Part shown: in pieces, positions 96 through 17,571 of the stretch
How positions within the stretch are numbered: the stretch's first letter is position 1
Layout of the letters: every line of letters begins with the position of its first letter
From: a bacterium
GTDB taxonomy: Bacteria; BMS3Abin14
Direction of reading: 5' to 3'
DNA length: 17,583 nucleotides
NCBI GenBank assembly: GCA_020350725.1
Contig: CP070719.1
Span: 1,132,998-1,150,580, forward strand
The notes under the pieces: generated by a model
Told to the model about the DNA's origin: nothing
What the model saw: only the letters and a program-made list of their open reading frames with translations
Database searches by the model: none
Made by a program: the position numbers and the translations under genes

Positions 96-240
96 GGGAA
101 AAGAGAGTTCACAGTTCACGGTTCACGGTGGGGAATCAGAGCATTAGAGGATTAGAAATTAGAGATTAGAAATCAATCCAAAATCCAAAGTCCAAGATCC
201 AAAAAAATAACTCTCAGTTCACCGTTCCCAGTTCCCAGTT

Positions 241-277
241 ATAGATTGCTTCACTCAAATATCGGTTCGCAATGACA
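241..277 (-). repeat. ~35-bp dispersed dyad element, copy 1
   Basis: The element reads, on the minus strand, TGTCATTGCGAACCGATA followed by TTTGAGTGAAGCAATCTAT. Over the aligned 37 bp it differs from copy 2 (10272-10308) at one base. ATTGC and GCAAT near the two ends are inverted repeats, so the element can fold. It sits directly next to a 7-bp GTTC array, as copy 2 does. Dispersed intergenic elements starting GTCATTGCG and ending GAAGCAATC are common in environmental bacterial genomes, from general recollection. Confidence 0.8.
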
Positions 278-373
278 ACCGCTATTTGTCTCCGCGCTCC
301 CTCTGGACGCTGGCCTCTGGACTCTGGACTCATTTCCCCCCCCCGCGTCCGCTTCTCGCCTGCCCTTCCTGCC

Positions 374-404
374 GTGAGCTTGTCGAACGGAGCCTGTCGA
401 AGGG
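374..404. repeat. TGTCGAA-type intergenic repeat pair
   Basis: Two adjacent related units, GAGCTTGTCGAACGG and GAGCCTGTCGAAGGG-like, sit side by side in repeat cluster 1. The pattern (G/A)GCYTGTCGAA resembles a widely dispersed intergenic motif seen in many environmental genomes. No second copy was noticed in this window. Its role is unknown. Confidence 0.5.
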
Positions 405-578
405 CTCCCTCTCCCCCTCGCCCTATCTCCCCCTCTGGACGCTGGCCCCTGGCCTCTGGACTCATTTCTCCCCGCATCCGCCCCTCGTCCATGCGCCCCC
501 TCCGGTCCCAGCCTCAGGAGGTACCCCTTGTCCCCGGCAGTATTGTAGTCCAGAGGCTGATTGCCTTATCATGTCCCC

Positions 579-1523
579 ATGAGAGGTCCGCTGATACTCC
601 TGGTTGTCGCCATTCTCATCCACTTCCCCTCTGGCTCGGGAGTAAGGGCGGCGGAGAAAGGCAGATGGATAAAGGGTTCCTTCCAACACGACGGGCGAAA
701 GAGGACCTACAGGCTGCGGCTGCCTCCTTCCTTTGCGGGCGGGGAAACAATCCCCCTGGTCCTGGTCCTCCACGGAGGAGGCGGGACGGCTCGGGCGATG
801 GTCAAACTGTCCCATTTTCACAAGGTGGCCGACCGGGAAGGCTTCATGGCCGTCTTCCCGGACGGGTTCAGGAGACACTGGAACGACGGCCGGATAATAG
901 ACGATTACCCGGCCCACCGGCAAGGGGTCGATGATGTGGGATTTCTTTCCCGACTGATCTCCACCCTGACGAAGGAATGGGGGGCCGATCCGGAAAGGGT
1001 TTACGTGACCGGTGCCTCCAACGGCGGCATGATGGCCCTGCGTCTCGCATGCGAGGTGAACGACCGGTTGGCCGCCGCTGCGCCTGTTATCGCCGCCCTT
1101 CCCCTGGACCTGTCGGACTCATGCCGGCCGGCTCGACCCCTTCCTATCCTCATGATCAACGGAAGTGAGGACGGGTTGGTGCCCTGGGAAGGAGGTCATG
1201 TGCGTTTCGGCAGGAGGAGGATAGGGACGATCCTCTCCGTCCCCGAAACGCTTTCCCGATGGGTTCGAAACAACGGTTGTCTTGGGCCGGTGCAGGAAAC
1301 AGATCTTCCCGACGCCGACCCGGGAGACAAAACCAGGATCACCCGGTACGATTACACCGGTTGCCGCGACGGCAAGGAGGTTTCCCTCCTGGAGGTAAAC
1401 GGCGGCGGCCACACTTGGCCGGGAGGCTTTCAGTATGCGCCCAGAGCCATCGTGGGCAGGACCAGCCGGGACATGGATGCGGCCGAGGTTATCTGGGACT
1501 TCTTCTCAAGGCACCGGCGTTGA
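579..1523 (+). CDS. Secreted PHB depolymerase / LpqC-family alpha/beta-hydrolase esterase
   Basis: A 314-residue alpha/beta-hydrolase of the polyhydroxybutyrate depolymerase/LpqC/feruloyl-esterase group (COG3509-type). These enzymes hydrolyse ester bonds outside the cytoplasm. Starting at the ATG at 579, the protein opens with a signal peptide (MRGPLILLVVAIL...) and a likely cleavage after VRAA near residue 25. The HGGGG oxyanion segment is near residue 65. The nucleophile is in GASNGG (Ser about 147), the acid is probably Asp about 198 in NGSEDG, and the histidine is in GGGHTWPGG (about 278). Four cysteines could form disulfides. An in-frame TTG at 561 has AGAGG at 552-556 only four bases upstream; ATG 579 has no good Shine-Dalgarno, so the exact start is uncertain. 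I prefer 579 because it begins the signal peptide. The substrate (PHB, feruloyl ester or other) cannot be told from sequence. The gene stands alone between repeat cluster 1 and malic enzyme. Confidence 0.85.
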   Translation: MRGPLILLVVAILIHFPSGSGVRAAEKGRWIKGSFQHDGRKRTYRLRLPPSFAGGETIPLVLVLHGGGGTARAMVKLSHFHKVADREGFMAVFPDGFRRHWNDGRIIDDYPAHRQGVDDVGFLSRLISTLTKEWGADPERVYVTGASNGGMMALRLACEVNDRLAAAAPVIAALPLDLSDSCRPARPLPILMINGSEDGLVPWEGGHVRFGRRRIGTILSVPETLSRWVRNNGCLGPVQETDLPDADPGDKTRITRYDYTGCRDGKEVSLLEVNGGGHTWPGGFQYAPRAIVGRTSRDMDAAEVIWDFFSRHRR

Positions 1524-1660
1524 TGTGGCCCGGATGAGGCGTGTGGCCTCGCCCATGTCCCGGGTCCGGCGGCGTCTTTCCACCGGCTGATCATGCCCTT
1601 GGGGTCTGCGTCGGGGGCTCCGAACCCGGTGGATGGTCCGGGAATATTTCTCCACCACTT

Positions 1661-1689
1661 TTGCAATCACGCACAATATTCCGTAGTAT
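1661..1689 (+). promoter_or_regulatory. Sigma-70-type promoter for malic enzyme gene
   Basis: TTGCAA (1661-1666), a 17-bp spacer and TAGTAT (1684-1689) form a plausible -35/-10 pair. Transcription would begin near 1696, about 60 bases before the malic enzyme start. This supports separate transcription from the upstream esterase. It was found by eye only. Confidence 0.5.
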
Positions 1690-1757
1690 CAGGACAGTGG
1701 TTCCGGCCTTCGGGAAATGCCGTGCTGCCAATTAAAGCCAGGCCAAAGGGGGAGATC

Positions 1758-16445: not shown

Positions 16446-16451
16446 GGCCCT

Positions 16452-16615
16452 CGCCGGTGAGAATACGCCCCGGCGGAATCCAGGTTTTGTAGGCACGGAA
16501 AAGCTTATTGGAGAACAAACAGAGGTCCCGGGCTTTACGTTCAGGGCCTTTCTTTTTGAACAACCAGAAAGGCTGTTCCGAAGGACTACAAAGATCAAGA
16601 AAAGGGAGAAGTAAA
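16452..16615 (+). promoter_or_regulatory. Long structured leader of the cold-shock gene, possible attenuator
   Basis: Within the leader AGAGG-T-CCC (16521-16529) can pair with GGGCCTTT (16544-16551), T526 bulged, and is followed by TTTCTTTTTG. That resembles an intrinsic terminator. The 3' half of that stem, GCCTTTCT (16546-16553), is instead a perfect complement of AGAAAGGC (16566-16573) downstream. The two helices exclude each other. This supports switch-like RNA control, as known for temperature-responsive csp leaders, but folding has not been computed. Confidence 0.45.
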
Positions 16616-16816
16616 ATGGCAGAAGGAACAGTCAAGTGGTTCAGCGAATCAAAAGGTTTCGGCTTCATCGAGCAGTCGGACGGCCCGGATGTGTTCGTGC
16701 ACTTTTCGGCCATCCAGGGTGATGGCTTCAAGACCCTGAGCGAGGGGCAGCGTGTAACCTTCGATGTGACCGAAGGCCCCAAAGGTCCTCAGGCCAGCAA
16801 CGTCGTCGGTCTGTAA
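16616..16816 (+). CDS. Cold-shock domain protein (CspA family)
   Basis: A 66-residue single cold-shock domain that binds single-stranded nucleic acid and acts as an RNA chaperone or antiterminator. It begins [19 protein letters not shown] with RNP-1 KGFGFI (13-18) and RNP-2 VFVHF (26-30); TVKWF and the C-terminal PQASNVV are conserved. AAGGGAG (16602-16608) lies 7 bases before ATG 16616. Its own promoter, long leader and strong terminator define a monocistronic unit. Which csp paralogue it is, and whether it is cold-induced, cannot be told from the protein. Confidence 0.96.
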
Positions 16817-16839
16817 GGCTTGACCGTAAAGAGCCACGG

Positions 16840-16874
16840 AAAGGCCCCCGGGTGCAAGCCCGGGGGCCTTTTCT
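16840..16874 (+). terminator. Strong rho-independent terminator after cold-shock gene
   Basis: AAAGGCCCCCGGG (16840-16852) pairs perfectly over 13 bp with CCCGGGGGCCTTT (16859-16871) across a 6-base loop, followed by TTTTCT. It lies 24 bases after the stop. On the minus strand it also follows the convergent thioesterase stop, but with only a TTT run, so two-way action is possible but weaker. Confidence 0.92.
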
Positions 16875-16919
16875 GCTTAATACCGGAAAACAGAGACGGC
16901 AGGAGCCTGAATTGCCTGC

Positions 16920-17345
16920 CTAGGGTCTCAGTATCCTCTTCGTAGTGGCCGCCTCCATGAGGAGAAAACGTCCTTCCCCCAGCGCCACCAGAGTTCCATC
17001 CGGGCCGAACATCTTCGCCTCGGCTGTAAAGTGTTTTGCCGTCTCCCTTTTGAGGGTCGCAAAGGCTCGCACCTTCACCCCGGGGGAGATGGCACATCGA
17101 AAGGTCACCTTCAGGGATTGGGTGAGGTAGTACATGTCCCGCTGAAAGGAGAGCCTGCCCAGGACCTCGCTCAGAAAGCCTGCAACAGCCCCCACGTGGA
17201 CGGTGTCCTGATAGCCGCAGTGCTGCTCCTGGAAGGTGCAGACACCCTCGACATCCCCGTTCTCCATATTCCGGAAAGTGGCCCTGAGTCCGTATTCGCT
17301 GCTCGGACCGCAGCCGAAACACCCATCGAAACCTTTCTGTTCCAT
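16920..17345 (-). CDS. PaaI/4HBT-type hotdog-fold thioesterase
   Basis: A 141-residue single-hotdog protein, probably an acyl-CoA thioesterase. The opening CFGCGPSSEYGLRATF (residues 9-24) matches the C-x-G-C-G-x-x-N-P-x-G-L signature of this subgroup. The central VHVGAVAGFLSEVLGRLSF segment (49-67) is the hotdog helix, with Glu in the usual acidic position. The strand VKVTFRCAISPG-like LKVTFRCAISPGVKVRAFA follows. ATG 17345 is chosen because GAGGAGG (complement of 17351-17357) sits 5 bases upstream; the open frame extends to 17408 without further family similarity. Substrate is unknown. It is convergent with the cold-shock gene. Confidence 0.85.
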   Translation of the reverse strand: MEQKGFDGCFGCGPSSEYGLRATFRNMENGDVEGVCTFQEQHCGYQDTVHVGAVAGFLSEVLGRLSFQRDMYYLTQSLKVTFRCAISPGVKVRAFATLKRETAKHFTAEAKMFGPDGTLVALGEGRFLLMEAATTKRILRP

Positions 17346-17473
17346 TGAAGCCTCCTCGGCTGTACAGGTGTGACTTCCCGGCGGCAAGGCCGCCCCTTTG
17401 CAGGACACCCCGATATAATTTTAGCAGGAAATAGCGGATCGGAAGGGCAGTGGGGTATCGGAAGGGCAGTTGC

Positions 17474-17571
17474 CGGTTCACGGTTCACGGTTGGCAACCG
17501 CCGTGATTCGTGATTTGTGATTCGTAATGCGAATAGACGAGTTCACATTTCACCGTTCACGGTTCACAGCT
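17474..17571. repeat. Intergenic repeat cluster 5 (continues to window end)
   Basis: CGGTTCA-type units start at 17474, 17481 and 17488. GTGATT units start at 17503, 17510 and 17517, with a degenerate GTAATG at 17524. TTCAC units start at 17542, 17549, 17556 and 17563. Every step is 7 bp. The GTGAT word also occurs in cluster 2 and the TTCAC word in cluster 1. The last bases of the window hold no other feature. Confidence 0.85.

What the first reader, a model, noticed from the sequence alone, without database searches (positions are those of the whole stretch)
104..17571. Many different intergenic 'word' repeats share one exact 7-bp period
Across five intergenic clusters I counted about 18 short arrays with unrelated units (TTCACGG, ATTAGAA, ATCCAAA, GTTCCCA, CTGGACT, GTGATTC, GATAAGT, CTCAGTT, AACCTGS and others). 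Their repeat step is 7 bp almost every time. Examples: TCCA at 177/184/191/198; GTGAT at 10210/10217/10224/10231; AACC at 15911/15918/15925/15932; TTCAC at 17542/17549/17556/17563. The unit sequence changes but the period does not, which points to a mechanism that copies or slips in 7-bp steps rather than spread of one sequence. Heptanucleotide STRR repeats of heterocystous cyanobacteria are the closest precedent I know, but those use a few fixed units. The clusters fill the larger gaps and avoid genes.
Basis: partly seen in the sequence, partly recalled or inferred. Interest (0 to 1): 0.8.

Follow-up and report, generated by a model that had tools for sequence, protein, structure and literature searches.

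The report
Polarised four-copy heptad blocks between genes
The gaps between genes of this bacterium are filled with short blocks that repeat a 6-letter word four times at 7-letter spacing; many different words share this layout, blocks near genes point away from the gene, and related species carry different words in the same gaps, so something seems to keep moving or writing such blocks rather than DNA simply stuttering by seven.

Summary
Confirmed: lag 7 (with 14 and 21) is a sharp intergenic-only peak genome-wide: 352 period-7 arrays in 181 kb of gap DNA, against 9 (lag 6), 68 (lag 8), 5 (lag 9), and 16 in 995 kb of coding DNA. The window's gaps hold 15; 0.02 are expected.

The interpretation changes. 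Arrays are mostly blocks of four 5-6 bp core words at 7-bp pitch (sometimes 8) with 1-2 bp free linkers. Linkers are saturated and, within an array, no more alike (in the host genome less alike) than between arrays, which argues against recent local 7-bp slippage. Copy number falls sharply after four. In the host genome about six word families spread as cassettes in set order. Near gene ends each word keeps one polarity, away from the gene whether the end is a start or a stop, and gaps mostly have a single axis. Two relatives show the same layout with other leading words; eight orthologous gaps with arrays in both genomes share no word.

Heptamer repeats and the 7-bp preference are known (Mrazek; Rehm 2015; MacGregor 2015). 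The non-G-rich four-unit block, polarity, nesting and word turnover appear new. Best reading: BIME-like mobile polarised blocks; mover unidentified.

The parts
106..129 (+). heptad block, word GTTCACN
   Evidence: lag-7 score 14.5
151..173 (+). heptad block, word ATTAGAN
   Evidence: lag-7 score 11
175..202 (+). heptad block, word RTCCAAA, four copies
   Evidence: lag-7 score 13.5; TCCA at 177/184/191/198 verified
217..240 (+). heptad block, word GTTCMCN
   Evidence: lag-7 score 12
303..331 (+). heptad block, word CTGGACN, four copies (right-side polarity)
   Evidence: lag-7 score 14.5; same cassette in many gaps
435..463 (+). heptad block, word CTGGACN, four copies
   Evidence: lag-7 score 12
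10210..10238 (+). heptad block, word GTGATTN, four copies
   Evidence: lag-7 score 12; GTGAT at 10210/10217/10224/10231 verified
10431..10450 (+). heptad block, word CTGGACN
   Evidence: lag-7 score 10.5
12985..13011 (+). heptad block, word GTCCAGN, four copies
   Evidence: lag-7 score 15
13060..13082 (+). heptad block GATAAGN, first arm of a recurrent inverted pair
   Evidence: lag-7 score 11; eight copies aligned
13097..13146 (+). heptad block CTTATCA/CTTAGTA/CTCAGTT, second arm and extension
   Evidence: lag-7 score 18
13418..13436 (+). heptad block, word GAACYGN (right-side polarity)
   Evidence: lag-7 score 9.5
15911..15931 (+). weak block, word AACCTGN/GAACYGN
   Evidence: three of the four quoted AACC positions verified; below the array score cut-off
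17474..17492 (+). heptad block, word CGGTTCA
   Evidence: lag-7 score 12
17502..17531 (+). heptad block, word GTGATTN, four copies (last one mutated)
   Evidence: lag-7 score 13
17542..17567 (+). heptad block TTCACNN, four 5-bp cores with 2-bp linkers AT, CG, GG
   Evidence: lag-7 score 11.5; TTCAC at 17542/17549/17556/17563 verified

Best explanation
Shown: the arrays are mostly polarised blocks of about 27 bp made of four 5-6 bp core words at 7-bp pitch with free 1-2 bp linkers; they come in word families, sit between genes, point away from a nearby gene and nest around one axis per gap, often as inverted pairs. Inferred: they are non-autonomous, REP/BIME-like mobile intergenic repeats. Pre-formed blocks (in G000 with flanks and neighbouring blocks; in relatives with at most a short inner tail) are copied into gaps, preferentially inside earlier insertions, and are lost or replaced quickly. 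The core words are kept because whatever moves or uses the blocks reads them at 7-bp pitch; the linkers are not read. Replication slippage is a secondary process that lengthens or deletes arrays when neighbouring units become identical. The mover or reader protein is not identified.
For: Intergenic-only lag 7. Recurrent cassettes with shared flanks and set order and orientation: AATCACN and GAACYGN on the same strand 91:11, CTGGACN opposite to AATCACN 49:6. Four-unit ceiling in an unbiased test: after two exact AATCAC units, unit 3 intact (at most 1 mismatch) in 26/29, unit 4 in 20/29, unit 5 in 3/29; copy-number histogram 3:15, 4:87, 5:9. Linkers saturated (pairwise difference 0.58, flank 0.60) while cores are kept (0.09). 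Polarity near gene ends, e.g. ACGCAGN 20:0, ATCTCAN 24:3, CTGGACN 29:1. Single-axis nesting: transitions LR 65 and RL 19 in G000 where about 59 of each are expected; LR 19, RL 0 in G008, of which 8 LR join different words. Descent in G000: excess of identical linker triplets (p 0.001); short shared inner tail GAGAAGATCAAAAG behind some ACGCAG blocks in G002. Turnover: 0 of 8 orthologous gaps share a word, with flanking DNA up to 95% identical. Arrays are commonest in convergent gaps in G000 (50% of gaps; 24% co-directional, 16% divergent) and nearer stops than starts, as for REPs.
Against: In G002 and G008 copies of one word share almost nothing but the core: linkers and most flanks look independent and the inner spacers inspected are unique, which is odd for copy-and-paste elements. 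No mobiliser is linked: Y1 transposases (PF01797) occur in 8 of 12 genomes but do not track the arrays, and the one found between two heptad arms is an ordinary small IS200-like gene. No empty site with clean ends was resolved, because array-bearing gaps mostly do not align between congeners.
Confidence: 0.45

Rival explanations
1. Seven-base replication slippage: polymerase misalignment favours 7-nt steps in unconstrained DNA (Mrazek's proposal, as cited by MacGregor 2015 and Rehm 2015); words are accidental and decay.
For: Period 7 dominates in unrelated phyla; relatives have other leading words; some long perfect arrays exist (11 x GGACGCA); in the 80 other-phylum loci copy numbers fall off more smoothly (68, 28, 11, 9, 3, 4).
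Against: Linkers within arrays are not alike, and in G000 AATCAC significantly unlike (0.165, permuted 0.261); sharp stop at four; polarity and single-axis nesting; recurrent families with shared flanks in G000.
Confidence: 0.2
2. Functional sites: a DNA- or RNA-binding factor, or an mRNA hairpin between cistrons, requires four cores or two complementary arms at gene ends, and selection keeps the layout while words drift together.
For: Core conserved, linker free; inverted pairs of one word frame short co-directional gaps between stop codon and start codon; one orthologous gap carries inverted pairs with different words in two species.
Against: Many unrelated words per genome would need many readers; 8 of 19 left-right pairs in G008 use different words that cannot pair; complete word turnover in congeners is hard to reach by selection at each locus.
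Confidence: 0.2
3. Templated end-writing: a template-dependent enzyme adds about four copies of a short word, with a loose junction base, to 3' ends at intergenic breaks, as telomerase writes interstitial repeats in eukaryotes.
For: Predicts the same word running 5'-3' away from both genes, one axis per gap, random linkers, unique contexts and a processivity limit; all seen in G008.
Against: No such enzyme or template was looked for or found; shared flanks in G000 and shared inner tails in G002 show ordinary copying; unprecedented in bacteria to my knowledge.
Confidence: 0.1
4. G-quadruplex elements as proposed for Xanthomonas heptamers, where four G-tracts explain the four-unit mode.
For: CTGGACN and TTTGGAY blocks carry four GG pairs.
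Against: The cores AATCAC, ATCTCA and GTGTCT contain no GG on either strand, yet show the same four-unit mode.
Confidence: 0.03
5. Assembly artefact.
For: None found.
Against: G000 is one 2.78-Mb contig and the arrays are short; three other assemblies of the family show the same layout.
Confidence: 0.02

Closest known systems
Heptameric GGGAATC/(GGGANTN)n repeats of Xanthomonas (Rehm et al. 2015, PMC4692102)
   Same: 7-bp period, conserved and free positions in the unit, four-unit mode, intergenic, close to the upstream ORF, frequent convergent inverted pairs, length and sequence variation between close species
   Different: one G-rich word there, attributed to G4; here many words without G-tracts have the same layout, plus polarity, nesting and word turnover
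TAACTGA direct repeats of Beggiatoaceae, Cyanobacteria and Bacteroidetes (MacGregor 2015, PMC4679880)
   Same: intergenic heptamers, 2-6 copies, strong polarity towards start codons; compound sets with other heptamers in some genomes
   Different: one dominant word, mostly upstream of starts; copy number not peaked at four; no inverted framing
Heptanucleotide simple sequence repeats in prokaryotes and cyanobacterial STRRs (Mrazek 2007 as cited in PMC4679880 and PMC4692102)
   Same: heptanucleotide excess; same puzzle of why seven
   Different: described as tandem repeats made by slippage; here interrupted four-core blocks with independent linkers
REP/BIME elements with RAYT transposases (Nunvar et al. 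2010, PMC2817692)
   Same: hundreds of extragenic copies, inverted pairs, mosaics with set order, species-specific families, bias to gene ends
   Different: single heptad blocks are direct repeats, not palindromes; no cognate transposase gene framed by its own blocks was established

Membership tests
Heptanucleotide simple sequence repeats (Mrazek/STRR kind) | tandem 7-bp units, excess over other periods, intergenic | tested here: met
Heptanucleotide simple sequence repeats (Mrazek/STRR kind) | units alike within an array, as local slippage predicts | tested here: not met
   linker identity within arrays equals or is below that between arrays; a few long perfect arrays are exceptions
Xanthomonas-type G4 heptamers | G-tract in each unit | tested here: not met
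   AATCAC, ATCTCA and GTGTCT words
Xanthomonas-type G4 heptamers | mode of four units and inverted pairs | tested here: met
REP/BIME | unit itself an imperfect palindrome | tested here: not met
   blocks are direct repeats; palindromy only at the level of block pairs
REP/BIME | RAYT gene flanked by inverted copies | tested here: inconclusive
   Y1 genes in 8 of 12 genomes; one small IS200-like gene lies between two ATCTCAN arms but has its own hairpin-like ends; G000 copies not framed, one side masked by N
MITE | terminal inverted repeats with conserved interior and target duplication | tested here: inconclusive
   inverted arms yes; the interiors inspected are unique; target duplications not assessable because gaps do not align

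The most novel reading that the evidence does not exclude
A cellular writing activity adds about four copies of a short word, with loose junction bases, to both DNA ends at intergenic breaks, so that gaps record successive rounds from the outside inwards; words differ between lineages. This would be a telomerase-like or template-copying terminal synthesis in bacteria.
Probability: 0.1. Interest if true: 0.95.

Novelty: new variant of a known kind. Interest (0 to 1): 0.7.

Why it matters
Why seven-base repeats are over-represented in bacterial gaps has been noted since 2007 and explained by polymerase slippage. These genomes offer tests (linker independence, four-copy ceiling, polarity, word turnover at orthologous gaps) that slippage fails and that point to block-wise, polarised insertion. 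Because the layout is shared while words change, close strains could show the birth of a block directly and so identify the machinery. It also suggests that non-coding DNA between conserved neighbours can be almost wholly replaced in congeners whose genes remain about 90% identical.

Tried and rejected
RAYT lead: a Y1 transposase gene in G002 lies between an inverted ATCTCAN pair, but it encodes a 142-aa IS200-like protein with its own hairpin-like ends inside the gap spacer, and Y1 genes do not track arrays across the phylum. Hairpin pairing as the general reason for inverted arms: rejected as general, since many left-right pairs use different words. G-quadruplex reason for four units: rejected, words without G-tracts behave alike. 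Phase-concentration of mismatches was significant (z 3.5 to 11.5) but partly expected after duplication, so not relied on. Lag-based array lengths also peak near four units, but detection favours longer arrays, so core-word tests were used instead.
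Full report
Setting. The window is G000:C1:1132998-1150580 of a single-contig 2.777-Mb bacterial chromosome. The phylum has 12 held genomes, all of one family, none of the same genus. I read 60 evenly spaced 20-kb stretches (1.2 Mb), 378 kb of G002, 400 kb of G008 and short G011 contigs. Genes were called with my own hexamer-model caller, so single start positions may be off.

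Observation. Three of the four quoted series are exact, the fourth has AACG in place of the last AACC. The window has 15 period-7 arrays, all in gaps; a Markov control gives 0.017; lag-7 runs are 39 against 4.4 in shuffles. Genome-wide the peak at 7, 14 and 21 is confined to gaps: runs of 8 or more matches 1.124/kb in gaps, 0.017/kb in coding DNA; arrays 352 at lag 7, 68 at lag 8, 9 at lag 6, 5 at lag 9. Period 7 is not simply what coding pressure leaves: periods 4, 5, 10 and 11, equally free in gaps, are nearly absent.

Words are few and recurrent in this genome. About 96 consensus units fall largely into families (CTGGACN, TTTGGAY, AATCACN, GAACYGN, TCTAATN, GATAAGN and a tail). GTTCMCN x3 occurs 135 times and its reversed control never; AATCACN x3 139 times, control 2. 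Blocks recur with shared flanks and in set order, e.g. CTCTGGACGCTGGCCTCTGGACTCTGGACTCATTTCTCCCC; neighbours keep relative orientation (AATCACN with GAACYGN 91 same, 11 opposite).

Architecture. In four-unit AATCACN arrays the six core positions differ pairwise by 0.09, the linker by 0.58, the flanks by 0.60. That selection required near-intact cores, so I repeated it without that bias: starting from two exact units, unit 3 is intact in 26 of 29 and unit 4 in 20 of 29, unit 5 in 3 of 29; backwards 34, 30 and 1 of 37. With core-only matching the histogram is 3:15, 4:87, 5:9. CTGGACN and TTTGGAY also stop at four; GAACYGN and TCTAATN fall off more smoothly. Generic 5-mer chains show the fall after four in G000 and G002 but not in the pooled loci from other phyla.

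Slippage test. Local copying of 7-bp units would make linkers alike within an array. They are not: ATCTCAN 0.333 within and 0.332 between in G008; in G000 AATCAC 0.165 within and 0.261 permuted, p below 0.0005; CTGGAC 0.333 and 0.376, p 0.009. The deficit suggests that arrays with identical neighbouring units are lost or avoided. A few long perfect arrays (11 x GGACGCA in G002) look like true slippage.

Relatives. G002 and G008 show the same lag spectrum (141 and 158 arrays at lag 7, 5 and 6 at lag 6) with other leading words (ATCTCAN, ACGCAGN, GTGTCTA), a four-unit mode (G008: 41 three-, 81 four-, 11 five-unit arrays by length) and inverted pairs of one word (G002 21% of neighbouring arrays, 2% expected; G008 14 of 59). 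Many pairs frame short gaps between a stop codon and the next start codon, and the spacers between the arms are unique. In orthologous gaps between conserved genes, eight have arrays in both genomes and none shares a word. Example: G002 L210:1593-1725 carries ATCTCAN x4 and TGAGATN x4, while G011 has GTGCAC x4 with 2-bp linkers AG, CA, TA at the same place. Array-bearing gaps mostly fail to align between G002 and G011 whereas three of four array-free gaps align; numbers are small.

Polarity. Within 40 bp of a gene end each word has one direction relative to that gene, at starts and stops alike: ATCTCAN outward 24:3, ACGCAGN 20:0, GTGTCTA 8:0; AATCACN inward 25:3, GAACYGN 32:5, TTTGGAY 23:4, CTGGACN 29:1. 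Reading outward words as L and R, gaps are mostly L then R: G008 19 LR and 0 RL, with different words in 8 of the 19; G000 65 LR and 19 RL where about 59 of each are expected; G002 6 and 2. Polarity was learned from arrays near gene ends that also enter this test, so it is partly circular, but each word's bias is itself far from even. The window's own gaps follow the rule by eye (GTTCAC, ATTAGA, TCCAAA, GTTCCC, then CTGGAC twice in the first gap).

Breadth. GTTCACN x4 occurs in at least 117 stretches of genomes from Bacteroidetes, Cyanobacteria, Acidobacteria, Gemmatimonadetes, deltaproteobacterial lineages, Chloroflexi, Planctomycetes, Clostridia and Proteobacteria. In 80 such loci, away from the trigger, period 7 leads (162 arrays; 36 at lag 6, 49 at lag 9, coding DNA included) and inverted pairs are enriched (22% against 7%). 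A survey of first contigs of other genomes shows it is patchy.

Mechanism. Blocks must be copied: dozens of loci with the same 24 specified bases cannot arise independently. In G000 copies share flanks and linker triplets above chance (p 0.001); in G002 several ACGCAG blocks share an inner tail GAGAAGATCAAAAG. Yet loci turn over within a genus while linkers are saturated and cores kept, so the constraint seems to act on the block lineage, i.e. on recognition by whatever moves or uses it. I therefore favour BIME-like mobile polarised blocks. The near independence of linkers and contexts in G002 and G008 leaves room for a writing mechanism at DNA ends, which would explain polarity and single axes directly. 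Neither mover nor writer has been identified.

Known kinds. Heptanucleotide excess, the slippage idea, Xanthomonas four-unit heptamers with inverted pairs, and polarised TAACTGA repeats are published (PMC4679880, PMC4692102); Mrazek 2007 itself was read only through these. I found no report of the layout across many words, of linker independence, of single-axis nesting or of word turnover at orthologous gaps, within an open-access library only.

Noticed in passing
window 10333-10373, 10395-10419, 13011-13036, 13321-13354, 13360-13383: GC-rich arrays with period 8 (CGCCCCAT, GAGGGGGC, ACACGGGG types) accompany the heptad blocks and recur genome-wide.
   Followed up: partly
window 241-283, 10271-10310, 13207-13246 (minus): Dispersed REP-like sequence ATAGATTGCTTCACTCAA.TATCGGTTCGCAATGACA, often near the middle of gaps.
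   Followed up: partly
window 374-407: Motif with CTTGTCGAACGGAGCCTGTCGAAGGGCTC, another dispersed intergenic repeat seen in other gaps of the genome.
   Followed up: no
window 13262-13315: CCACAGAGGACACAGAGGCG...CGCCGCCACAGAGGGCCACAG motif, recurrent in gaps.
   Followed up: no
window 16478-16872 (+): Rfam cspA thermoregulator (RF01766) over a cold-shock protein gene.
   Followed up: no
L219:1397-2020: An IS200-like transposase gene sits in the spacer between two ATCTCAN arms that hug the flanking genes.
   Followed up: yes
L243 (G011:C621), about 2227-2270: Palindromic core GTGCAC four times with 2-bp linkers AG, CA, TA (8-bp pitch): the block layout with another core and linker length.
   Followed up: partly
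L107:6885-7023: Bacteroidales contig with a GTTCACN array of about 20 units, far beyond the four-unit limit of the window's family.
   Followed up: no
G008:C1 near 507300 (L276), L210:11860-12342, L026:10279-10378: Runs of N fall inside several array-bearing gaps; these parts could not be read.
   Followed up: no
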